DNA from: an uncultured Dyadobacter sp.
GTDB lineage: Bacteria > Bacteroidota > Bacteroidia > Cytophagales > Spirosomataceae
Assembly: GCF_946482605.1 (NCBI RefSeq)
Contig: NZ_CAMLSE010000008.1
Span: 241,269 to 305,268 of the forward strand
Direction of reading: 5' to 3'
DNA: 64,000 nucleotides
Of this stretch, positions 20,735-30,701 are shown in pieces. Positions within the stretch are counted from its first letter, which is position 1. Each line of letters opens with the position of its first letter. The notes beneath the pieces are model-generated. The model made no database searches and was not told where the DNA came from. It saw only the letters and a list, made by a program, of their open reading frames with translations. The position numbers were made by a program, and so were the translations under genes.

Positions 20735-22270
20735 TTATTTCACCTTCAAAAACACCAGCAACCCCAGCACACTAACAATCAAAACGCTCGCCGCGGCTGC
20801 GGTCATCACTCCATCGCGCGCATTTTTGCCCAGGAAGTCCAATCCGCTGTATTTGTGGAGGAATGCGAAGCTGAAACCTTCACGGCGATTGCGATCTTCG
20901 ACCTTCGTGGATAGCCGGGCCGTGGTCGTTTCAATGTAGTAGGTGGTGTGGTCCGGCGTGTTGTAGGCTAATTTCACCACGGGCAGTCGTTTGTTGACGA
21001 AACCATATTCACCCGCAAAACTGGTCACCAGGGAGGCTTTTTCGACTTCCGCGTCCGAAATGGGCGACGAGATTTGCGCTTCCATCAGGTCGCAGCAGCT
21101 TTCGGCATTGCGTTCTTGCTGCGCGGCAAACTTGCGCGCGAGGTATTTGGCGAAGCGGATATTGCCGTCTTCCAGCTTTTTGCCGTCGCGGATGTTGGTA
21201 TAATCCACAATCGTTTTGTCGGTTTCCCAGTCTTTCCTCACGGTTTGCCAGAATATGTTTTCACCCCATTTGATCAGGCCGACGTTTGAAACACCTTTGA
21301 GGTCGATCATGGAGGCCTGGGCTACTTCTCCGGTTTTGATCACGGGGTCATACACATACTTTTGGCGCTCGTCGGGGTCGAGTTTCTGAACGGCATGATA
21401 GGCGCCCGAGAATGCGAAAGTGAAGGTGAAAATGCTGCACCAGATGCCGATCGAGCGATGGTACTTTCGGAGTACGCCACGTTGACTACCCGGGCGACTG
21501 GTCTTGAATTTTTTCCACATTAACCCATAAACCAGCACCCCGGCGACCGCGGAAAGGATAATGAGGCTAAGGAACGTCACCATCACGACAATGCGGATCG
21601 TGTTGTTAGCGATCATATCCATGAAACCCCAGTTATGGAAGGTGCCAAATACCCAAATGAACGCCTTGCGGCCCTTGTCGTTGAACGTGGCAAAGCGGCT
21701 CTGCCCGGTTTCAACATAAATATCCATCTTCCGGTCGTCGTCGAAGCTGACTTTCCACACCGGCAGAAAGCGGTTTACATATTTGTACTGGTCGGTGAAT
21801 GTGATCAGCAATGTGCTGGAAACGATCTTCGATTGCTGGTCGCCGAGCATGTAGCGGGCCATATGCTCCGCATATGTACGATCGCCGTCGGCGAGTTTGA
21901 TACCGGAAACGGCGTTGAAATAGGTCAGTTTGTCATCAGGGCCTTTGATCTGATAATAGCCTTTCCCTCCGAATTTGACAAGTCTGAAATTTTTAAATTC
22001 AGTCACTTTGTTTTGCAAAAGTACTTGACCCAGCGACAATGCAACGTCGCTTTGCGCCACAGGCTCCGCCTTGTAAAATTCGTTGGCAATGCTGGTTTTG
22101 AACCAATGCGACATAAAAGGATGCATTACGCCGGAAGCGGTCCAGAAGATGGTCGGGATAATAGCCAGCAGCCCGAGCATGCGGTGCCAGCGGTAAATGT
22201 TCCGGCGGATCGTTTTTTTAGCCTTCGTTTTGAACGACTCCCTTGGTTGAATAGCAATATCGTCGATCAT
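20735..22270 (-). CDS. PepSY-associated TM-helix protein (metal uptake, reductase-like)
   Basis: 511-residue inner-membrane protein. Helix 1 has the family motif RWHRMLGLLAIIPTIFW (about residues 28-44) with a conserved His. Two periplasmic PepSY-like lobes are separated by a helix pair near residues 220-290, including RKYHRSIGIWCSIF, and a last helix closes the protein. PepSY_TM proteins beside TonB receptors are thought to reduce or strip metal from imported chelates; the paired membrane His residues could hold heme (inference). A periplasmic CC pair (ESCCDLME, about residue 394) is a further metal-binding candidate. The start overlaps the receptor's end by 4 bp (ATGA), so the two are translationally coupled. 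Confidence 0.88.
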   Translation of the reverse strand: MIDDIAIQPRESFKTKAKKTIRRNIYRWHRMLGLLAIIPTIFWTASGVMHPFMSHWFKTSIANEFYKAEPVAQSDVALSLGQVLLQNKVTEFKNFRLVKFGGKGYYQIKGPDDKLTYFNAVSGIKLADGDRTYAEHMARYMLGDQQSKIVSSTLLITFTDQYKYVNRFLPVWKVSFDDDRKMDIYVETGQSRFATFNDKGRKAFIWVFGTFHNWGFMDMIANNTIRIVVMVTFLSLIILSAVAGVLVYGLMWKKFKTSRPGSQRGVLRKYHRSIGIWCSIFTFTFAFSGAYHAVQKLDPDERQKYVYDPVIKTGEVAQASMIDLKGVSNVGLIKWGENIFWQTVRKDWETDKTIVDYTNIRDGKKLEDGNIRFAKYLARKFAAQQERNAESCCDLMEAQISSPISDAEVEKASLVTSFAGEYGFVNKRLPVVKLAYNTPDHTTYYIETTTARLSTKVEDRNRREGFSFAFLHKYSGLDFLGKNARDGVMTAAAASVLIVSVLGLLVFLKVK

Positions 22271-24621
22271 AGCCCTCTGTTTTTGCCGGTGAATGTGTAT
22301 TGAACCCCAAACACAAATGTCCTCGGAGCTGCCGCATTGTAAGTAGTGCGGTCGGTCGCATTATTCCCGCGCGTCGCATTCGTGGCATACAGCGCGTCGT
22401 TGAGGTTGAGGATGTTGGAAAACAATTCGATACCCTTCCAGTTGTAGCCGAGCCTCAAATTGAGGACATCATACCCTTCGTATTGGACGGTATTGATCTG
22501 ATTCTGGTAGTAGGAGGCTACATGCTGCCATTCTACCGACGAACGGAAGTTTTTGAACCATTTGGGATAATAGCTGAATTCCGTATTCCAAAGCCAGCGT
22601 GGCGATGAAGGCATGTCCTTACCATTCACGTTCTTGACCGCATCGGATTCCCGGTTGCTGAGCGCAAATTCTTCATACCGGTGCATGGCAGTTGTTCCCC
22701 CGAAACGGAAGAAGAGTTCTTTCGTCGGTTTGTAGGTCAGGCCAAACTCAATGCCCCGGTGAAGCGTTTTGCCGGCGGACTGGTAGTCGTAGGAATTGTC
22801 CGGCAGGCGCACATTGAGTAGTTCGTTGCGGCCATTCATCTGGTAAAAAGCAAGATCGATATAGACCTTGTTGTTGAACACCGATGCCCATCCGCCGATT
22901 TCGGCGTTGTTGAACTGGGCGGGTTCCAGGTTGTAATAAAACAAATCGCCATTTGGCAGCGGCGTGGTACGCTTCCGGAATACCGACGTCAACCCAGGGG
23001 GTGAAAAGCCTCTTGAGTAATTGGCATAAATACCTTTTCCTTTACCCAGGTCATATGTCGCGCCGATCTTGGGAGTGACTTTACTGTACGATTTGCTGCC
23101 CGAGGTACTATCCAGAAAATTGGTGTAGCTGAATGACATCCGGTCGTAGCGCAGCCCCGCGGACACACGGAGTTTGGGCAGCAACTCGAAATCATATTGC
23201 GTGTAGGCAGCCGTGTTTTTGATATCCGCATCATAATCGGCATTCCTGATATCCGGCCGCTCTTTTATAATGGAATATTTTTCGACCGATTTCTTGTCGG
23301 GCCTCAGTTCAGCAGCCAGATCGACCTGGTACGACCAGTAATTGGATGGCGAAAAGTCAAAAACACCACCGGTAATCAGTTTGGAGTTCAGAAAACTGAA
23401 CCGCTGGCTATGCTGGGCAATGAGGCCTAGGCTCTTGAAATTGCTGGAATTAATCTCGCCCTTTGCGGTCGTTTGGCCCGTTGTCCAGCGGATACCGTAG
23501 TTGGGGTTCTGGCCATGCTCATTTTTTCGGGCAAATGCCGTAATGAATGTCTGTGAGCCATTTTTCCAGTCTTTTTCAAATGTGAGCCGACTGCGCAGCG
23601 CATTCGATTTACGGTAAGTAAAGTCCGTCGTGCTTACATATTGGCGGGAATAGAATGCGACGCTGTCGACACTGCCGCTGGTTTGCGAGTCATATTTGCT
23701 GTATGCAAATGTGTAGATCAGGCGTGAGGACGGAGTGAAATGGTATTCCAAACGTGCGTTCACCGAATTTTTATCGTAGTCCGAGTTCTTCATCCAGCTG
23801 TCGCGCTGCCTGGCCACGAAGCCACCCACATATACGCCAAACTTGCCTGCCATTCCGCCTGCACCATACTGGAGTCGCTGGTAGCCCCATTGATCAGCCT
23901 GTATGCCGATTTTGGCTGTTGGCAGGATCGTTGGGCGTTGGGTGATGAAATTAATGGCGCCACCTACGGCCTCAGGACCATAAATAGAAGAAACGGGTCC
24001 CTTTACAACCTCCACGGAGCTAATGGCGAACTGGTTGAATTCGAGGATCGAATTGTGGTTGAAAACACCCATGGGGCGGATCGGGACGCCATCCTCCATG
24101 TAGAGGAAGTAGGCATTGGTTGTGAAAGGCTGACGGATCGCCATCGAGTGCTGTTCATTGCCGAGGTTGACCATCATGACGCCCGGTACCTTGTTTACGA
24201 TCTCGTACATCGCCGTCGGTTTCGCTTCATCGATCATCCGGGGTGTGAGCTTCGAAATGGCGATGGGGCTGTCGGTCCGCAATGTAGCTTCGCGATTACC
24301 GGTGACTACAACCGACTGCAAATTTTCGGCAGCGGCATCGAGTCCGACGGTAATGCGCTTTGTCTCGCCGATCTGGATTTCCCGGGTCGAAAAGCCGACA
24401 CTAGAAATGCGGACTTTTGCATCCGGGAAATTTTCTCTGAATGCAAAATGCCCATTGTTATCGGTAGTGGTCCCAAACGGCGAGGATAGTATCTGAACGG
24501 TGGCGCCGGGAATCGGCTCTTTGGTTTGGGAGTCGAATACGCTGCCTTCGATTCCCTGCGCGATCGACGCATGCGCGCATACATACAGGAGTAGGGCCTG
24601 TAAAAATATTTTCAGGTTCAT
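22267..24621 (-). CDS. TonB-dependent outer-membrane receptor (metal/chelate type)
   Basis: 784 residues: signal peptide (1-21), a carboxypeptidase-regulatory-like domain (~22-105, with PIPGATVQILSS and TTTDNNGHFAF), a plug domain (~110-225, with PVSSIYGPEAVGGAINFITQRP) and a 22-strand-type barrel ending in the aromatic FVFGVQYTF. The overall size and lack of a SusD partner suggest a siderophore/metallophore-type receptor rather than a SusC glycan porin. It overlaps the PepSY gene by 4 bp and follows the first Cys-motif gene by 48 bp. With MbnP/MbnH upstream, a copper-binding ligand is the favoured substrate (inference); iron chelates remain possible. Confidence 0.92.
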   Translation of the reverse strand: MNLKIFLQALLLYVCAHASIAQGIEGSVFDSQTKEPIPGATVQILSSPFGTTTDNNGHFAFRENFPDAKVRISSVGFSTREIQIGETKRITVGLDAAAENLQSVVVTGNREATLRTDSPIAISKLTPRMIDEAKPTAMYEIVNKVPGVMMVNLGNEQHSMAIRQPFTTNAYFLYMEDGVPIRPMGVFNHNSILEFNQFAISSVEVVKGPVSSIYGPEAVGGAINFITQRPTILPTAKIGIQADQWGYQRLQYGAGGMAGKFGVYVGGFVARQRDSWMKNSDYDKNSVNARLEYHFTPSSRLIYTFAYSKYDSQTSGSVDSVAFYSRQYVSTTDFTYRKSNALRSRLTFEKDWKNGSQTFITAFARKNEHGQNPNYGIRWTTGQTTAKGEINSSNFKSLGLIAQHSQRFSFLNSKLITGGVFDFSPSNYWSYQVDLAAELRPDKKSVEKYSIIKERPDIRNADYDADIKNTAAYTQYDFELLPKLRVSAGLRYDRMSFSYTNFLDSTSGSKSYSKVTPKIGATYDLGKGKGIYANYSRGFSPPGLTSVFRKRTTPLPNGDLFYYNLEPAQFNNAEIGGWASVFNNKVYIDLAFYQMNGRNELLNVRLPDNSYDYQSAGKTLHRGIEFGLTYKPTKELFFRFGGTTAMHRYEEFALSNRESDAVKNVNGKDMPSSPRWLWNTEFSYYPKWFKNFRSSVEWQHVASYYQNQINTVQYEGYDVLNLRLGYNWKGIELFSNILNLNDALYATNATRGNNATDRTTYNAAAPRTFVFGVQYTFTGKNRGL

Positions 24622-24669
24622 TATAAGTCATGTAGAAGATAAAAATTCAGTTAGGTAACCTTTGAATTT

Positions 24670-25047
24670 TTATCTCCTGGGCGGGCGCAACAGTTTACCC
24701 AGCGGTGCCGAGTAGAACAGCAACTGGTGGGCGAAACGGACGGGTTCGAGGAATGAGACCGCCGCAGATTCAAATGAGTAAGTGTTGGTAGAGGGAGTAA
24801 ATAGCTGAATAACAGGTGTATTGCGTACCTTTTCCGAGGTTTCCTTATCCTGTTTTTCCTGCTGTTGTTTCAGTTTTTTGGCGAGGTAACACTTGCCATT
24901 ACAACGCATTTGCGGTCGATTTCGGTTTTCGCACAGCACTTTGGCGATATATTCCCGGTTCAGTTTGAAATACGCAATCGTCCCCCACGGGCTGAGCGTG
25001 GGCAGCATAATAGCGAGGAGCAATATGTATGCTATGAGGGGGCGCAT
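24670..25047 (-). CDS. Small membrane-anchored C-x9-C-x3-C protein, copy A
   Basis: 125 residues. An N-terminal hydrophobic segment (residues 2-27) acts as anchor or uncleaved signal. It is followed by a conserved block REYIAKVLCENRNRPQMRC plus NGKCYLAKKL, placing Cys39, Cys49 and Cys53 with Met47 between them. A Lys/Gln/Glu-rich linker follows and then a C-terminal region ending in PP-R-R. A second gene at 27222-27617 repeats the same block. Cys/Met spacing suggests a thiol/thioether Cu(I) site, but the family is unnamed to me. The ATG at 25047 is chosen; an upstream frame runs into the heptamer repeat element. It lies between the di-heme enzyme and the receptor. Confidence 0.72.
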   Translation of the reverse strand: MRPLIAYILLLAIMLPTLSPWGTIAYFKLNREYIAKVLCENRNRPQMRCNGKCYLAKKLKQQQEKQDKETSEKVRNTPVIQLFTPSTNTYSFESAAVSFLEPVRFAHQLLFYSAPLGKLLRPPRR

Positions 25048-25056
25048 ATTTTTACT

Positions 25057-25137
25057 TCGGCAATCGGCTGTCGGCAATCGGCTTTTGGCATTGGCTGTTA
25101 ATGGTTTGATTGCCGATGGCCGAAAGCCGACTGCCAC
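25057..25137. repeat. Heptamer-phased inverted repeat (TCGGCnn / nnGCCGA)
   Basis: TCGGC occurs at 25057, 25064, 25071 and 25078, TTGGC at 25085 and (off phase) 25091, all but the last exactly 7 bp apart. After a 16-bp gap, GCCGA occurs at 25112, 25119 and 25126 and GCC again at 25133, also 7 bp apart. The two half-arrays are complementary and can fold into a long imperfect hairpin. The element fills the gap between the di-heme enzyme's stop and the Cys-motif gene. It could be a dispersed mini-repeat, a processing hairpin or an attenuator. Confidence 0.6.
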
Positions 25138-26264
25138 TAAAACGATGTCCCTATTCCGGGATCGGAGAAACGTTTGTCTTTGATAAAATCGTCGTCATTT
25201 AAAGTGCTCAGAAAGGCAATGATCGATTGCTTTTCCGAGGTGGTCAGGCTGATCCCTTGTTTTTGTCCCGTCACGTTCAGCAACGGGTCTAATGTGGGCG
25301 AATCGAAAATGGTGCTTTTGCCGGGCTGGTCATTGGCATAATGATTAAGAACCTGCTGCAAGGTGGTAAAGCGGCCATCGTGCATGTAAGGCGCCGTGAG
25401 CCCTACGTTGCGCAGGCTGGGAACCTTGAATTTCAGCCGGTCATTCTCGTTCAGGGTAATGTCGTATCGTCCCTGGTCATTGATCTTGTTCGTCGGCAAG
25501 CCATTATTCCGGAATTTTTGATCGGAAAACAATTCCCCGCTGTGACAGGTAGCGCACTTTTGTTTGAAAATAGCCAAACCATCCTTTTCCTGGGCAGTCA
25601 GTGCGGAGGCATCTCCGCGGACGGAGTAGTCGTAGCGCGATGTGGCCGATACCATCGACATCATAAATTGGGACAATGCCTGCATCATCCGGTCCGCATT
25701 GATCTCATCGGTTCCAAAAGCGGCCTTAAACATCTTAGGGTAATCGACCTGCTTGGCTGCGCCTGCAACGGGTGTCTTTTTCAGCTTATCGATCACATTC
25801 GAAACGCGTTCGTCCATTTCCACTTTGTTCTGAATAGGCACGGGCGGAACCATATCCATGTCATGCACGCCCCCATCCCAGAAGAATGAGGTATTCCAAG
25901 CCATATTTTGAACTGAGGGGGCATTGCGGGTGCCTATCAGATCGTCGACGCCGTGACTGAGGTCATGGCCGTGGTGGGTAAACGCAGCCTGCTGCTGGTG
26001 ACAGGTCCCGCAGCCTATTTTATCGGTTCTGGACAGGATGCCGTCGTAAAACAGAAATCGGCCCAGTTCCACACCTTCGACCGTCATGGGGTTTTTGGAC
26101 AGGTCATATACCGGATCAGGAAAATGGGAGGGCTTGGTCCATTGCAGCGGAGTCGGTTTGCCGGTCGGAAGAACCGGTTCAGGGTTGCCGGACCCCTTAT
26201 TGCAAGAGACCGCCAGTCCTAAAAAGGCCGCTATTAAACCACAAATGCCGATAACCTGCTTCAT
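25137..26264 (-). CDS. Di-heme cytochrome c enzyme, MbnH/MauG/CCP family, lipoprotein
   Basis: 375-residue exported lipoprotein (lipobox Cys21). It has two covalent heme sites, Cys85-Gly-Thr-Cys-His89 and Cys236-Ala-Thr-Cys-His240, spaced as in bacterial cytochrome c peroxidase/MauG enzymes, and an APYMHDGRF segment near residue 290. MbnH members pair with MbnP and oxidise a tryptophan of MbnP to kynurenine using peroxide, which creates a copper site; this is known for the methanotroph proteins. Here the stop of the MbnP gene is only 9 bp from this ATG, the expected arrangement. The YMHDG Met is a peroxidase-like feature, so plain H2O2 detoxification is the alternative. Confidence 0.87.
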   Translation of the reverse strand: MKQVIGICGLIAAFLGLAVSCNKGSGNPEPVLPTGKPTPLQWTKPSHFPDPVYDLSKNPMTVEGVELGRFLFYDGILSRTDKIGCGTCHQQQAAFTHHGHDLSHGVDDLIGTRNAPSVQNMAWNTSFFWDGGVHDMDMVPPVPIQNKVEMDERVSNVIDKLKKTPVAGAAKQVDYPKMFKAAFGTDEINADRMMQALSQFMMSMVSATSRYDYSVRGDASALTAQEKDGLAIFKQKCATCHSGELFSDQKFRNNGLPTNKINDQGRYDITLNENDRLKFKVPSLRNVGLTAPYMHDGRFTTLQQVLNHYANDQPGKSTIFDSPTLDPLLNVTGQKQGISLTTSEKQSIIAFLSTLNDDDFIKDKRFSDPGIGTSF

Positions 26265-26273
26265 TCCTTGTGA

Positions 26274-27101
26274 TTAATTGAGATCGATCCGGTCAAAACT
26301 GAACATCGTCGCATAGTTGTCGGCTATGGTTGCCGAGAACGGCGTAAACATCACTCCTGAATTTTCCTTAATGCTGAATGGCTTGGGGCCATTGAATATC
26401 TTCAGAATATCGGCTTTGAGATAGACATCAGAAACGAGCGTAGTCGTTACGATCGCTTTCTGGCTGGTGAAATTCAGCTTTATTGTTCTGATGTTGTTTA
26501 ACGTCCGTTCGGTAAGACCTCCAAAGCCGCCGATATGATAGTAGTAGTTACCGTTCGGCGTACTGGCCGAATCGGCGCTGCCTTCCATTTTCAGGAAAAT
26601 ATAGCCCGGGTTCCAGTCCCAGTACATAGCCTCTTCATTGGTTGGCCCCATATCTTTATCCAGAATGCCCTTCCGTTTCGAAATGTCTGCAACACTCCGA
26701 AGACTGTCGACCCCGATCATAAATTCCATACCGATATACTCGCCGGTCAGGACGTGGTTAATACGGATTTTGCGGGACGAAGCATCGCCTTCGCGGACCA
26801 GAAAATAGCTCGAATCCTGCGGGACAGTAAATGCAGAACCGTCAATTTTGATCAGCTTGATATTCGAAATGTAGTAATTGAGCTTGTTCACGGTAAACTC
26901 TTCACCCGCCGCATTGGTATACTTTGTACTATCCAATTGCAAATCCCGGTCGCCGACTACATTATCCAGGTTGATGCGAATGGAGCCAGTCTCGATCGGA
27001 TCGGTATCATCGTCTTCATCTGGGAAAGAGCATGATACCGCAAGGATCCCTACTGTTAACGAAAGTGCGGAAAGGGATAGAAATGAAAATATGCTTTTCA
27101 T
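26274..27101 (-). CDS. MbnP-family copper-binding lipoprotein
   Basis: 275 residues. Signal peptide with lipobox AVSC (Cys24), then an acidic linker (PDEDDDTDP) and a beta-rich domain. Family landmarks are LNYYISNIKL, the IGVDSL strand, the motif MYWDWNPGYIFLKMEG and YYYHIGGFGG. The only two tryptophans of the whole protein are in the W-D-W motif, consistent with a dedicated oxidation target, and the mature protein has just two His residues, potential metal ligands. MbnP proteins bind copper after the partner enzyme converts Trp to kynurenine. The partner gene is 9 bp downstream. The ATG at 27101 is chosen by the signal peptide; a 22-residue longer frame is not signal-like. Confidence 0.87.
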   Translation of the reverse strand: MKSIFSFLSLSALSLTVGILAVSCSFPDEDDDTDPIETGSIRINLDNVVGDRDLQLDSTKYTNAAGEEFTVNKLNYYISNIKLIKIDGSAFTVPQDSSYFLVREGDASSRKIRINHVLTGEYIGMEFMIGVDSLRSVADISKRKGILDKDMGPTNEEAMYWDWNPGYIFLKMEGSADSASTPNGNYYYHIGGFGGLTERTLNNIRTIKLNFTSQKAIVTTTLVSDVYLKADILKIFNGPKPFSIKENSGVMFTPFSATIADNYATMFSFDRIDLN

Positions 27102-27131
27102 AGAGCTATGTGTTATGAAATATGACTCATG

Positions 27132-27147
27132 TGCACGACCTCGTGCA
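27132..27147. promoter_or_regulatory. Dyad upstream of the MbnP gene
   Basis: TGCACGA, 2 bp, TCGTGCA forms a perfect 16-bp dyad 30 bp upstream of the MbnP ATG, in the 120-bp gap after the second Cys-motif gene. It could be an operator for a metal-responsive regulator. I see no clear TAnnTTTG element here. Confidence 0.35.
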
Positions 27148-27221
27148 AGGAGTCGGCAAAATTGCAAAGAGATTTGTTCTAACTGATGTCAGAACTCATG
27201 ATGGGGCCGTTTTATGCGAAA

Positions 27222-27617
27222 TTAAGCCAGCGGAGGATGAAAAATATCGTCCGGAGCGATACGGGGTATGAATAACGGGAGAGAGGCGAAGTTTGCAGCT
27301 GAAGTCGTGTGCAGTATAACAGCGTTGGTTTTGAAATCAAATCCAGAGCGCTGGTCCATTACCTGGTCCAGGAGTTTGAACATATAACTTTTTTCGGCCT
27401 GCCGCTTTTCATGCTCATCCAATGCGGCAATGCGTTTGGCGAGGTAACATTTACCGTCGCAATGCATTTGGGGGCGTGCCCGGTTTTCGCATAGATTGGC
27501 AACGATATACTCCCTTCTGATCTCAAAATCCAGGTATAACAAGGGAATCACCCATACTTTGATCAGCATGAGGCTCAGCAGGCTGAGCGATATCCATTGT
27601 TTACAAGAATTTCTCAC
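27222..27617 (-). CDS. Small membrane-anchored C-x9-C-x3-C protein, copy B
   Basis: 131 residues from a GTG at 27617. Hydrophobic residues 8-30 form an N-terminal anchor, followed by REYIVANLCENRARPQMHC and DGKCYLAKRI: Cys43, Cys53 and Cys57 in the same C-x9-C-x3-C spacing as the copy at 24670, with Met51 and His52 adjacent. A charged helix (DEHEKRQAEKSY) follows, then a C-terminus ending HPPLA. The shared block of ~20 residues and identical position relative to the anchor make the two genes paralogues. Its GTG overlaps the end of the preceding gene by 17 bp. Function unknown; a periplasmic copper chaperone or thiol reductant role is inference. Confidence 0.72.
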   Translation of the reverse strand: MRNSCKQWISLSLLSLMLIKVWVIPLLYLDFEIRREYIVANLCENRARPQMHCDGKCYLAKRIAALDEHEKRQAEKSYMFKLLDQVMDQRSGFDFKTNAVILHTTSAANFASLPLFIPRIAPDDIFHPPLA

Positions 27618-28218
27618 AATAACAGAAACGAAGGAAACGCGGGAAATGGTGTTTCGATGGCAAAGGTAATGATGAATACGTATAAAGTCGTCGGAATGTT
27701 AAACGCAGGAGCCAGTTAGCCGCCAATTTGAAATCAAACCCAAAATAGCCTTCGATTCCCAAAGCGACATTGTTACTTTGCTTAAAGCGGCCTTCATAAT
27801 CGCCAAACGTCGGGCCTTTAATACGGAACTTGCCTTCGTATCCGGCAAGTGAAACGACCGGGCCATAGCCGGCATAGAGGATTCTCCTTGTGTTGCGCAT
27901 TCGCCTTACTTCATACGCAGCGTGTAAATACGCACCCGTGAATGCCTGTGAAGGGTCAGAATCGACGTATTGATGCGTGGACCCACTTGCAAAGCCTGCT
28001 CCGAGGTACAGTCGTCGGCCGGGCTTCTTCAAACTGAGCAGATAATGTGGCTCTACGATGACAGCGTTCCGTATGTAATATTGTTTGGGAAAAATGAATG
28101 AGGGCAAGCTATTGATCACATCGAGGCCAATGTAGGAAGCTCTTCTCGCAAGCGTGTCCTGCGCCTGTGAACACAGGGATGTAGTCATCAGGATAACTAT
28201 TGTAACGAATCTTTTCAT
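27601..28218 (-). CDS. Outer-membrane protein, DUF6048-like
   Basis: 205 residues with signal peptide (1-19, ending CSQAQ). The remainder alternates strand-like segments (YIRNAVIVEPHYLLSL, RRLYLGAGFASGS, RILYAGYGPVVSL, IEGYFGFDFKL), as in small barrels. Its position directly after a DUF6452-type lipoprotein, a pairing known in Bacteroidota, supports DUF6048. The final ~30 residues (after TFRRLYTYSSLPL) look unlike a barrel end and are rich in Phe/Cys/Arg, so a late frameshift or natural divergence is possible. The start overlaps the lipoprotein stop by 4 bp. Confidence 0.65.
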   Translation of the reverse strand: MKRFVTIVILMTTSLCSQAQDTLARRASYIGLDVINSLPSFIFPKQYYIRNAVIVEPHYLLSLKKPGRRLYLGAGFASGSTHQYVDSDPSQAFTGAYLHAAYEVRRMRNTRRILYAGYGPVVSLAGYEGKFRIKGPTFGDYEGRFKQSNNVALGIEGYFGFDFKLAANWLLRLTFRRLYTYSSLPLPSKHHFPRFLRFCYCEKFL

Positions 28219-28694
28219 GGCGTGATTCGGATTAGAATTCCTCCGCCAGGTACAGGACTTGTCCAGGATAGTTTACCTGGGCGAACGTAAGTGTCGTAAA
28301 TGATTTCGACCGAACGGAATGTGCTTTCGTAATGCTTCTCTTGTGACGGCTCGATAGCATCGTTTATGAATCCGCAGCCTCCTTTGTAACGGAACGTCCG
28401 TCTGTAATAAATGGAGAGGGTATCAATACGATTGGCAAACCGAAATATGTAAGTGGTTGTGTCCGAGCGAAGGGAGATGGGAAGATCTAATTCAAGATAA
28501 GACACTTTGGTTTTTGGGAGCTGTGCATTCGTAGCCTGTTGATTAAATGCGTTCAGTGCGTGTATCGAATCGAGGCGTATGGAGTCTCCCGAAAAGTTAA
28601 TCCTTGCCGTGAGCTCGGCTTGTGGTCCGCAATCCTCGCAGCTTTGGAGAGCAATGACTGCAAATAGGAATACAATCAGTAAAAGATATTTCAT
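28215..28694 (-). CDS. DUF6452-family lipoprotein
   Basis: 159 residues. Signal peptide with lipobox LQSC (Cys19), then CEDCG. The family-like core reads LDLPISLRSDTTTYIFRF and IDTLSIYY, with a later GGCGFIND segment carrying a conserved Cys, matching DUF6452 as I know it. Function is unknown; with its barrel partner it is presumably an outer-membrane assembly or surface pair. I choose the ATG at 28694 because the signal peptide begins there; an in-frame start at 28745 would add 17 hydrophilic residues. It appears to be the first gene of the minus-strand block that runs through the copper locus. Confidence 0.72.
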   Translation of the reverse strand: MKYLLLIVFLFAVIALQSCEDCGPQAELTARINFSGDSIRLDSIHALNAFNQQATNAQLPKTKVSYLELDLPISLRSDTTTYIFRFANRIDTLSIYYRRTFRYKGGCGFINDAIEPSQEKHYESTFRSVEIIYDTYVRPGKLSWTSPVPGGGILIRITP

Positions 28695-29561: not shown

Positions 29562-30242
29562 ATGATGCTTCTGCAAGCACTTACTGACTCTACTGCGGCT
29601 GCACCCGTCGCTGAGCAGGGCCTTTCTGTAATCGATCTTCTTGCAAAAGGGGGCTGGGTGATGTTGCCACTCGGGCTGTTGTTTCTGGCCACATTATTTC
29701 TCATTATCGAGCGTTTCCTGGGAATTGGAGCTAACGGAAAGATAGAGCTTCAATTTGTGGATAATGTCAAAGATTTTATTCAACAGGGAAACCTGAAATC
29801 GGCTGAGTCGCTTTGCAGGAATCAACGTAATGCAGCAGGACGCATTTTGGAAAGGGCGATTGGACGCATTGGTTATCCGATCAAGGATATTGAGACCACG
29901 ATCGAGAATGCAAGCCAGATCGAGATTCAGAGAATGGAAGGTAATTTGCCTTACCTGGGGGTTATCGCCGGTATCGCGCCGATGCTCGGGTTTGTGGGAA
30001 CGATTTCCGGTATCATCCGTATCTTCTACGACATTTCAATTTCAAACGATTTCAATATCAGCACCATCGCGGGTGGTATGTACGAAAAAATGATCACGTC
30101 CGGCTCCGGTCTGATCATCGGTCTGATCGCCTATGCCGGCTACCACTTGCTGAACATGAAAATCGACCGGTTTGCTTTGCGCCTGCAAATGGCTGCTTCC
30201 GATTTTCTGGATGTGCTTCAAAAGCCGGTTGCCGCGAAATAG
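29562..30242 (+). CDS. exbB: ExbB/TolQ/MotA-family proton channel
   Basis: 226-residue inner-membrane subunit that uses the proton gradient, with ExbD, to energise TonB. Helix 1 lies near residues 30-50 (GGWVMLPLGLLFLATLFLI). A long cytoplasmic loop follows, then helices 2 and 3 with GNLPYLGVIAGIAPMLGFVGT and the conserved GLIIGLIAYAGYHLL. The TM2/TM3 pattern with TPxLGLxGT-like Ala-Pro-Met-Leu-Gly is family-typical. The partner exbD gene starts 66 bp downstream; no free-standing TonB gene is present here. Promoter -7 at 29448-29455. Confidence 0.9.
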   Translation: MMLLQALTDSTAAAPVAEQGLSVIDLLAKGGWVMLPLGLLFLATLFLIIERFLGIGANGKIELQFVDNVKDFIQQGNLKSAESLCRNQRNAAGRILERAIGRIGYPIKDIETTIENASQIEIQRMEGNLPYLGVIAGIAPMLGFVGTISGIIRIFYDISISNDFNISTIAGGMYEKMITSGSGLIIGLIAYAGYHLLNMKIDRFALRLQMAASDFLDVLQKPVAAK

Positions 30243-30308
30243 ATATTTAAGGTCCTGGAATGTCTGTAAGGCCGGCCAGGGCTGACAACCCAATATTTTT
30301 CCTCAAAT

Positions 30309-30701
30309 ATGAAAATACGTCGGAAGAGCCGGTTTGCCCCGGAAGTGTTTACGCACTCGCTCAACGATATCATGTTCTTCCTGCTGTTGTTCTTTTTGAT
30401 CATCTCTACGATGTCCAATCCGAACGTGATCAAACTGATGCTGCCGAAAGCATCAGCGACTCAGCAGATGTACAAAAAGCAAATTACATTGTCGGTTGAC
30501 GATAAAAAGGCATATTTCATCGATAAGGAGCCCATTCCGTTTGACAGGCTGGAAGCGGAATTGCAGAATATCTTCGCAAATGTGGAGGAACGCACCGTCG
30601 TGTTGCGTGTTGATAAGAACCTCGCAGTGCAGGACCTGGTGGACGTTCTCGAAATCGGTGCCAAAAACGATATTAAGATGGTAATGGCTACGGCCAAATA
30701 A
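30309..30701 (+). CDS. exbD: ExbD/TolR-family protein
   Basis: 130 residues with one N-terminal transmembrane helix (residues ~19-37, DIMFFLLLFFLIISTM) carrying the conserved Asp at its cytoplasmic start, which takes part in proton flow. A periplasmic alpha/beta domain follows, with VVLRVDKNLAVQDLVDVLE typical of ExbD/TolR. It pairs with the preceding exbB. Only one ExbD is present, whereas many Bacteroidota carry two exbD and a tonB in the same cluster. The nearby M56 proteins with TonB domains may be the clients (inference). A bidirectional hairpin ends the operon. Confidence 0.88.
   Translation: MKIRRKSRFAPEVFTHSLNDIMFFLLLFFLIISTMSNPNVIKLMLPKASATQQMYKKQITLSVDDKKAYFIDKEPIPFDRLEAELQNIFANVEERTVVLRVDKNLAVQDLVDVLEIGAKNDIKMVMATAK

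What the first reader, a model, noticed from the sequence alone, without database searches (positions are those of the whole stretch)
20735..28694. Eight-gene copper-type acquisition locus built around MbnP and MbnH without methanobactin genes
On one strand lie a DUF6452 lipoprotein, a barrel, a C-x9-C-x3-C protein, an MbnP-family protein, its di-heme MbnH-like partner (9 bp apart), a second C-x9-C-x3-C protein, a TonB-dependent receptor and a PepSY protein (4-bp overlap). MbnP/MbnH make a copper site by oxidising a Trp to kynurenine (known from the methanotroph pair). The MbnP here has only two Trp, both in one W-D-W motif. The set would import, hold and reduce copper or a copper chelate.
Basis: partly seen in the sequence, partly recalled or inferred. 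Interest (0 to 1): 0.78.

Follow-up and report, generated by a model that had tools for sequence, protein, structure and literature searches.

The report
Copper locus with two leader-peptide switches
A Dyadobacter bacterium carries a copper gene cluster in which two small cysteine proteins look like copper-sensing leader peptides, one ahead of a copper-binding protein pair and one ahead of an import pair, rather than parts of the import machine.

The parts
28215..28694 (-). DUF6452-like lipoprotein gene (159 aa); accessory, weak family match
   Evidence: PF20050 19.8 bits, below cut-off 27.1; with the barrel in 8 of 22 Dyadobacter loci
27601..28218 (-). small outer-membrane-barrel-like protein (205 aa), 4-bp overlap with the DUF6452 gene; accessory
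27222..27617 (-). CxC1: candidate copper-sensing leader ORF (131 aa, GTG start): N-terminal hydrophobic helix, C-x9-C-x-G-x-C, C-terminal H-P-P-L-A-stop
   Evidence: family features; AF2 helix 2-33, low confidence C-terminal part
27231..27236 (-). Pro-Pro codons of CxC1, two codons before the stop
   Evidence: sequence
27102..27221 (-). 120-bp CxC1-MbnP intergenic leader
   Evidence: no conserved RNA structure found
26274..27101 (-). MbnP-family copper-binding lipoprotein (275 aa) with M159-x-W161-x-W163 and H189
25137..26264 (-). MbnH-like di-haem MauG-family enzyme (375 aa), CGTCH 85 and CATCH 237
24670..25047 (-). CxC2: second candidate copper-sensing leader ORF (125 aa): C-x9-C-x-G-x-C, C-terminal R-P-P-R-R-stop
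   Evidence: family features
24634..24678 (-). stem-loop between CxC2 and the receptor; 5' arm begins at the first codon after Pro-Pro and covers the stop codon
   Evidence: MFE -17 kcal/mol, z -4.5; 95.5% of cells paired over 12 Dyadobacter leaders, at most 67.7% when slid
22267..24621 (-). TonB-dependent receptor (784 aa) with N-terminal carboxypeptidase-regulatory-like domain
20735..22270 (-). PepSY_TM protein (511 aa), candidate haem-dependent metal reductase; 4-bp overlap with the receptor gene
   Evidence: PF03929 57.8 bits; nine His
29562..30701 (+). divergent ExbB/ExbD-like genes, neighbours in most of the Dyadobacter loci
   Evidence: named by reading the sequence; no family scan

Best explanation
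This is a copper-handling locus made of two independent units, each headed by its own copper-sensing leader ORF. Unit A is CxC1-MbnP-MbnH: MbnH is inferred to oxidise W161 of MbnP to kynurenine and so create a Cu(I) site. Unit B is CxC2-TBDT-PepSY: the receptor imports a metal chelate and PepSY reduces it. The CxC proteins are inserted in the membrane during translation, and their Cys cluster meets copper outside while the ribosome is slowed at the C-terminal Pro-Pro. When copper is scarce, a ribosome paused on Pro-Pro keeps the downstream leader RNA open (for CxC2 it would sit on the 5' arm of a stem-loop) and the uptake genes are expressed. When Cys-bound copper releases the pause, downstream expression falls. 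Shown here: gene content, motifs, the Pro-Pro ending, fixed spacing, gene neighbourhoods and the CxC2 stem-loop. Inferred: copper binding, ribosome pausing, direction of control, kynurenine formation and the imported substrate.
For: (1) 137 of 137 non-redundant CxC proteins (202 ORFs in the loci held) end in Pro-Pro, 122 with 2-4 residues after it; third Cys to Pro-Pro is 67.0 +/- 1.9 residues (62-71) in the 129 with C-x9-C-x3-C; the other 8 have C-x6-C-x3-C. A model of the N-terminal half alone finds the same 202 ORFs, so the ending was not selected for; 4 of 191 control ORFs have Pro-Pro in the last 13 residues. Middle regions of equal length are on average 14% identical. (2) Of 79 CxC genes not near MbnP, 55 have a TonB receptor as next large gene (27 by similarity to the window receptor, 28 by Pfam Plug). 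A seed-based count gives 57 of 79 against 4 of 228 control genes, but 49 of the 57 were themselves seeds; an independent Pfam scan of 19 of the 20 distinct control next genes of 500 aa or more finds 3 receptors. Other neighbours: PepSY_TM 15, SCO1 6, YtkA 5, PCuAC 2 of 72 downstream; SCO1 3 of 68 upstream. (3) CxC directly upstream of MbnP at 42 or more of 121 MbnP places in 395 genomes and in 30 of 76 loci. (4) Gap after CxC median 94 bp (n 71) against 37 bp (n 385). (5) Known precedents with the same anatomy: CruR (PMC9426467) and CutF (PMC9973294). (6) In two Bacteroidota genomes with no CxC match, a DUF2946-like ORF ending in RGPP lies just upstream of MbnP (G246 above, G396 below the Pfam cut-off). 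(7) CxC2 stem-loop.
Against: No profile similarity to DUF2946: 0 of 35 at E 10, hhalign probability 1.3%. The residue before Pro-Pro is mostly His (79 of 137) or Arg (26), not the proven RAPP/RGPP. Spacing is 67, not CruR's 45, and CruR's export signal is dispensable for its control. The Pro-rich end of CutF did not act as a strong stalling sequence in its test. A stop-overlapping helix is not enriched family-wide (41 of 136 against 35 of 140); the CxC1-MbnP leader has no conserved structure. CxC heads its unit only weakly more often than controls (44 of 77 against 143 of 326, p 0.04), and in the window CxC1 overlaps the barrel gene. Seven of 22 Dyadobacter MbnP loci lack CxC1, and 46 of 76 loci have no CxC within 600 nt upstream of MbnP. 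No expression data exist here.
Confidence: 0.6

Rival explanations
1. The CxC proteins are ordinary membrane-anchored periplasmic copper chaperones that pass Cu(I) between receptor, MbnP and SCO1; the Pro-Pro end is a protein feature.
For: CxxxC is also the Sco-type copper motif (recalled); same neighbourhoods; the AF2 model has an N-terminal helix and a second helix after the Cys cluster (pTM 0.48).
Against: A chaperone does not obviously need Pro-Pro close to the stop at a fixed distance across a poorly conserved stretch; each of the two units in the window has its own copy; long gap after the gene.
Confidence: 0.25
2. Unit B is an iron/siderophore uptake module that happens to sit beside a copper pair.
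For: With a profile of 17 receptors the best solved match is a siderophore receptor, 5fp1 (184 bits); the copper receptor CrtA 9rvq is sixth (150 bits), after two PQQ and two more iron receptors. TBDT, DUF4374 and PepSY form the iron-regulated xenosiderophore locus of B. thetaiotaomicron (PMC10434189, passages).
Against: CxC recurs with SCO1, PCuAC and MbnP and on a plasmid as CxC-hypothetical-SCO-PepSY; with the window receptor alone CrtA is the second-best solved match; no DUF4374 hit among the eight proteins.
Confidence: 0.12
3. CxC acts in the opposite sense, CutF-like: copper strengthens the pause and induces the downstream genes (copper defence rather than acquisition).
For: CutF shares CxxxC, export and a stem-loop right after the ORF (PMC9973294); one plasmid unit B lies next to CusA/CzcA efflux genes.
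Against: Downstream genes are mostly import and assembly genes (TBDT, SCO1, PCuAC); CruR, which heads such genes, lowers them with copper (PMC9426467).
Confidence: 0.15

Closest known systems
MbnP/MbnH of Methylosinus trichosporium (7l6g; 6e1c recalled as its MbnH) and MopE/CorA with their di-haem partners
   Different: No methanobactin genes recognised among the eight; 14% identity over aligned residues to 7l6g; below the NCBIfam cut-offs
CruR (DUF2946) - CrtA - CrpH operon of Bordetella pertussis
   Same: Small exported Cys protein ending in Pro-Pro, then TBDT, then PepSY_TM; SCO, PCuAC and MbnPH as further partners of the DUF2946 family (PMC9426467, PMC12914433, PMC13038864)
   Different: No sequence homology detected; C-x9-C-x3-C not CXXC; mostly HPP or RPP not RAPP; Cys-PP spacing 67 not 45; receptor not shown to be CrtA-type
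CutF of Rhodobacter capsulatus and the CutF-like proteins of PMC9973294
   Same: CxxxC, Pro-Pro within 15 residues of the end, under 150 aa, downstream gene close, stem-loop after the ORF (CxC2); that survey reports 19% of its 5,334 list-D proteins from Bacteroidota (not normalised)
   Different: CutF precedes a multicopper oxidase and copper induces it; whether the CxC family is one of its clusters could not be checked (no supplement look-ups)
RAPP/RGPP arrest peptides (PMC12992588, one section and passages seen)
   Same: C-terminal Pro-Pro, upstream of TonB and copper genes; TonB-related ones reported throughout Gram-negatives
   Different: That survey took RAPP/RGPP only and reports Cu-related uORFs missing in Bacteroidota; CxC ends mostly in HPP, RPP, PPP or QPP
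XusABC-type iron loci of Bacteroides
   Same: TonB receptor plus PepSY
   Different: no DUF4374 protein found here; CxC leader present

Membership tests
MbnP family (PF20243 / TIGR04052) | Pfam profile match | tested here: met
   PF20243 164.2 bits, cut-off 27
MbnP family (PF20243 / TIGR04052) | NCBIfam TIGR04052 cut-off of 140 bits | tested here: not met
   43.2 bits
MbnP family (PF20243 / TIGR04052) | WxW motif (first Trp oxidised to Kyn in M. trichosporium; recalled) | tested here: met
   W161-D-W163; both Trp kept in 57 of 57 with MbnH and 21 of 22 without
MbnP family (PF20243 / TIGR04052) | MbnP fold | tested here: met
MbnP family (PF20243 / TIGR04052) | kynurenine and one Cu(I) | not testable with these tools
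   needs mass spectrometry and metal analysis
MbnH (TIGR04039) | two CxxCH haem sites, MauG/CcP domain, MbnP neighbour | tested here: met
   CGTCH 85, CATCH 237; PF03150 170 bits; 9 bp from MbnP
MbnH (TIGR04039) | NCBIfam cut-off of 362.85 bits | tested here: not met
   230.5 bits; only 3 of 395 Bacteroidota genomes reach it
CruR / DUF2946 | PF11162 profile | tested here: not met
   0 of 35 CxC at E up to 10; hhalign probability 1.3%
CruR / DUF2946 | CXXC and RAPP motifs | tested here: not met
   CxC has C-x9-C-x3-C and mostly HPP
CruR / DUF2946 | Pro-Pro just before the end, fixed Cys-Pro spacing | tested here: met
   137 of 137; 67 +/- 1.9; value differs from CruR's 45
CruR / DUF2946 | copper-dependent control in cis | not testable with these tools
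   needs reporter fusions
CutF-like proteins (rules of PMC9973294) | under 150 aa, PP within last 15 residues, metal-binding Cys, co-directional gene within 1,000 nt | tested here: met
   131 and 125 aa; PP 2 residues from the end; gaps 120 and 48 bp
CutF-like proteins (rules of PMC9973294) | N-terminal signal peptide | tested here: inconclusive
   hydrophobic N-terminus in 113 of 129 and helix 2-33 in CxC1; cleavage not predicted here
CrtA copper receptors | CrtA sequence cluster and its ligand-site residues | tested here: inconclusive
   window receptor alone: 9rvq second; profile of 17 receptors: 9rvq sixth at 150 bits; site residues not mapped
PepSY_TM reductases | PF03929 and paired His | tested here: inconclusive
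   PF03929 57.8 bits, cut-off 28.8; nine His; pairing not modelled
Methanobactin operon | MbnB family protein | tested here: inconclusive
   window genome not held; PF05114 in 2 of 6 relatives' genomes, a broad family; none of the eight proteins matches it

The most novel reading that the evidence does not exclude
Bacteroidota own a separate, widespread family of copper-sensing arrest peptides (C-x9-C-x3-C ... mostly [HRQ]PP then stop), unrelated in detectable sequence to CruR and outside the reach of RAPP/RGPP surveys. With 67 residues between the Cys cluster and the Pro-Pro, against 45 in CruR, the cluster would be at or near the outer mouth of the translocon when the ribosome pauses (tunnel and translocon lengths recalled), so the nascent chain reads periplasmic copper. 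Copper units such as MbnP-MbnH, TBDT-PepSY, SCO1 and PCuAC carry their own private copies of the switch.
Probability: 0.45. Interest if true: 0.78.

Novelty: new variant of a known kind. Interest (0 to 1): 0.62.

Why it matters
Few bacterial copper uptake systems are known (so PMC12914433 and PMC13038864), and in the papers seen here I met none with its regulator from Bacteroidota. If right, one short gene family without a family model marks and controls copper uptake and copper-protein maturation across much of the phylum, gives a genome-wide label for copper receptors and SCO1/MbnP units, and suggests that copper-sensing leader peptides with the same length rule exist without detectable common ancestry. 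It also makes the role of MbnP/MbnH pairs testable in non-methanotroph bacteria.

Tried and rejected
Treated as one conserved eight-gene operon: rejected by gene order in relatives. CxC as divergent DUF2946: rejected by profile tests. A family-wide stop-overlapping stem-loop: not supported, although median folding z was lower than in controls (-1.49 against -0.47; z below -3 in 19 of 136 against 21 of 140). Conserved structure in the CxC1-MbnP leader: none. The receptor as a CrtA orthologue: not shown. PepSY as evidence for copper: weak, since iron loci have it too. Receptor hits on an Acinetobacter and a Pseudoalteromonas plasmid gave no informative copper context. An order search for proteobacterial DUF2946 around L044 failed because that genome groups with Bacteroidota. 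An attempt to align leaders of the other Dyadobacter receptor type gave nothing clear. Co-occurrence statistics are not corrected for relatedness.

Counts that were cut or biased: at most 10 candidates per genome were scored and 150 places were listed with more not listed, so CxC counts are lower bounds. Of 90 listed places not within 8 kb of an MbnP place I selected 87 and fetched 80; one (L180) had no CxC gene called, leaving 79. One search scanned 47 of 48 downstream genes (L129 dropped, runs off its contig). One search scanned 68 of 97 upstream neighbours. The receptor detector was seeded with the long genes after CxC, and 49 of its 57 hits are seeds; the Pfam-based count is 55 of 79. The control scan lists only 25 of 215 families; SCO1 and PepSY_TM are not among them, which means at most 2 of 140 each. 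One search folded 6 of the 12 CxC2 leaders and 3 of the 13 CxC1 leaders one by one.

Full report
Observation. All eight genes are present on the minus strand at the stated place. Domain scans support MbnP (PF20243 164 bits), the MauG-type di-haem enzyme (170 bits), the TonB receptor and the PepSY_TM protein; DUF6452 and the barrel are below their cut-offs; the two small Cys proteins match no Pfam or NCBIfam model at E 0.01. The closest named proteins are from Dyadobacter.

Gene order. In 22 Dyadobacter loci MbnP-MbnH is always present; CxC1 in 15; CxC2-receptor-PepSY in 11; DUF6452-barrel in 8. Where unit B is absent, MbnH is followed by DUF6787 in several loci (for example L011, L012, L014), and 8 of 8 such genomes checked carry a CxC-receptor pair of another type elsewhere. 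Two Hymenobacter plasmids carry CxC-receptor-PepSY as a trio with receptors about 55% identical to the window's; a Spirosoma plasmid carries CxC-hypothetical-SCO-PepSY. So the locus is two units side by side, plus an accessory pair.

The CxC family. An alignment of 35 members shows an N-terminal hydrophobic stretch, invariant C43, C53, G55 and C57, and invariant P128 P129 near the end. In 395 Bacteroidota genomes it is found in 157 (a lower bound), MbnP in 97, both in 72 (Fisher p 2e-15, not corrected for relatedness). At 42 of 121 MbnP places a listed CxC gene lies directly upstream, 145-449 bp between profile matches. Away from MbnP, 55 of 79 CxC genes are followed by a TonB receptor as next large gene (27 by similarity to the window receptor, 28 by Pfam Plug). 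A seed-based comparison gave 57 of 79 against 4 of 228 control genes from the same loci; 49 of the 57 hits were seeds themselves, but a Pfam scan of 19 of the 20 distinct large next genes of the controls found only 3 receptors. Other downstream neighbours are PepSY_TM (15 of 72), SCO1/SenC (6), YtkA (5), BNR_2 (5), YHS (3) and PCuAC (2); upstream SCO1 3 of 68; in 140 control genes SCO1 and PepSY are not among the listed families, at most 2 each. This ties the family to copper more than to iron.

Why a leader peptide. Of 137 non-redundant CxC proteins all end in Pro-Pro, 122 with two to four residues left; the distance from the third Cys is 67.0 +/- 1.9 residues in the 129 with C-x9-C-x3-C, the other 8 having C-x6-C-x3-C. 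A model of the N-terminal half alone recovers the same 202 ORFs, so the ending was not selected for; 4 of 191 control ORFs have Pro-Pro in the last 13 residues. The stretch between is on average 14% identical between pairs of equal length. The gap after CxC is longer than other co-directional gaps (median 94 against 37 bp). [quoted passage not shown]); its export signal was dispensable for control. Arrest of CruR on its Pro-Pro was shown in vitro in PMC12992588 (section 13 and passages). CutF of Rhodobacter has CxxxC, a Pro-rich end and a stem-loop over the next gene's start, and senses copper outside the cytoplasm; its Pro-rich end alone was not a strong stalling sequence (PMC9973294, abstract, sections 10 and 11, passages). 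CxC shares this anatomy but no detectable sequence homology with DUF2946. In two Bacteroidota genomes without a CxC match a DUF2946-like ORF takes the place upstream of MbnP, one of them below the Pfam cut-off.

RNA. Between CxC2 and the receptor a stem-loop begins at the first codon after Pro-Pro and covers the stop codon (window z -4.5; five relatives -2.7 to -3.5). Over 12 Dyadobacter leaders 95.5% of cells pair, with two pairs changed on both sides; slid controls reach at most 67.7%. A paused ribosome would cover the 5' arm. Against a general rule, such helices are not enriched over the whole family (41 of 136 against 35 of 140) and the CxC1-MbnP leader shows no conserved structure.

What remains open. 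The receptor is not placed: alone, its second-best solved match is the copper receptor CrtA (9rvq, identified by PMC12914433), but with a profile of 17 receptors three iron/siderophore and two PQQ receptors score higher, and TBDT-PepSY pairs also serve iron in Bacteroides (PMC10434189, passages). The sign of regulation is inferred from the kind of genes controlled. Direct sensing and pausing are untested.

Novelty. MbnP/MbnH outside methanobactin loci and copper leader peptides are known kinds. PMC9973294 reports many CutF-like proteins in Bacteroidota, and I could not see whether the CxC family is among its clusters; PMC12992588 reports Cu-related RAPP/RGPP uORFs missing in Bacteroidota but TonB-related ones present throughout Gram-negatives. 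The listings of ten paper searches showed no paper on this family, but none searched for the motif itself and most subscription papers are not held. CrtA and CrpH papers were seen as abstract, one or two sections and passages. I therefore rate it a new variant of a known kind.

Noticed in passing
L047, L050, L057, L063, L066, L072, L075: Bacteroidota MbnP genes that directly follow a 70-84-aa YidD-like gene and have no MbnH next door, yet keep the WxW motif; who modifies them, if anyone, is unclear (YidD named by eye).
   Followed up: no
L039, L040, L041, L043, L044, L049: A second recurrent set: CxC, then a ~300-aa protein with a CDxC motif, then MbnP; in L039, L040, L041 and L049 also a 130-156-aa lipoprotein between them, with weak DUF4625/Big_7 similarity in the one scanned.
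   Followed up: partly
L044: Record titled Azovibrio restrictus MAG carries Bacteroidota-type CxC and MbnP; its order search returned genomes also drawn in the Bacteroidota sample, so the title looks wrong.
   Followed up: partly
L138, L145: CxC-receptor pairs followed by a BNR-repeat protein instead of PepSY, a possible different receptor type (BNR_2 in 5 of 72 neighbours).
   Followed up: no
L130, L146, L152, L154, L167: CxC followed by a YtkA-like protein (two scanned singly; the others by likeness) and then a ~665-682-aa protein, without Pfam match in the one scanned; another copper-type neighbourhood.
   Followed up: no
two of the 19 control next genes, in CxC loci: Match the nitrous oxide reductase propeller model, a copper enzyme, near CxC genes.
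   Followed up: no
window 29562-30701: ExbB/ExbD-like genes diverge from the locus and stay there in Dyadobacter loci that lack the receptor (L011-L018), so they are not specific to it.
   Followed up: partly
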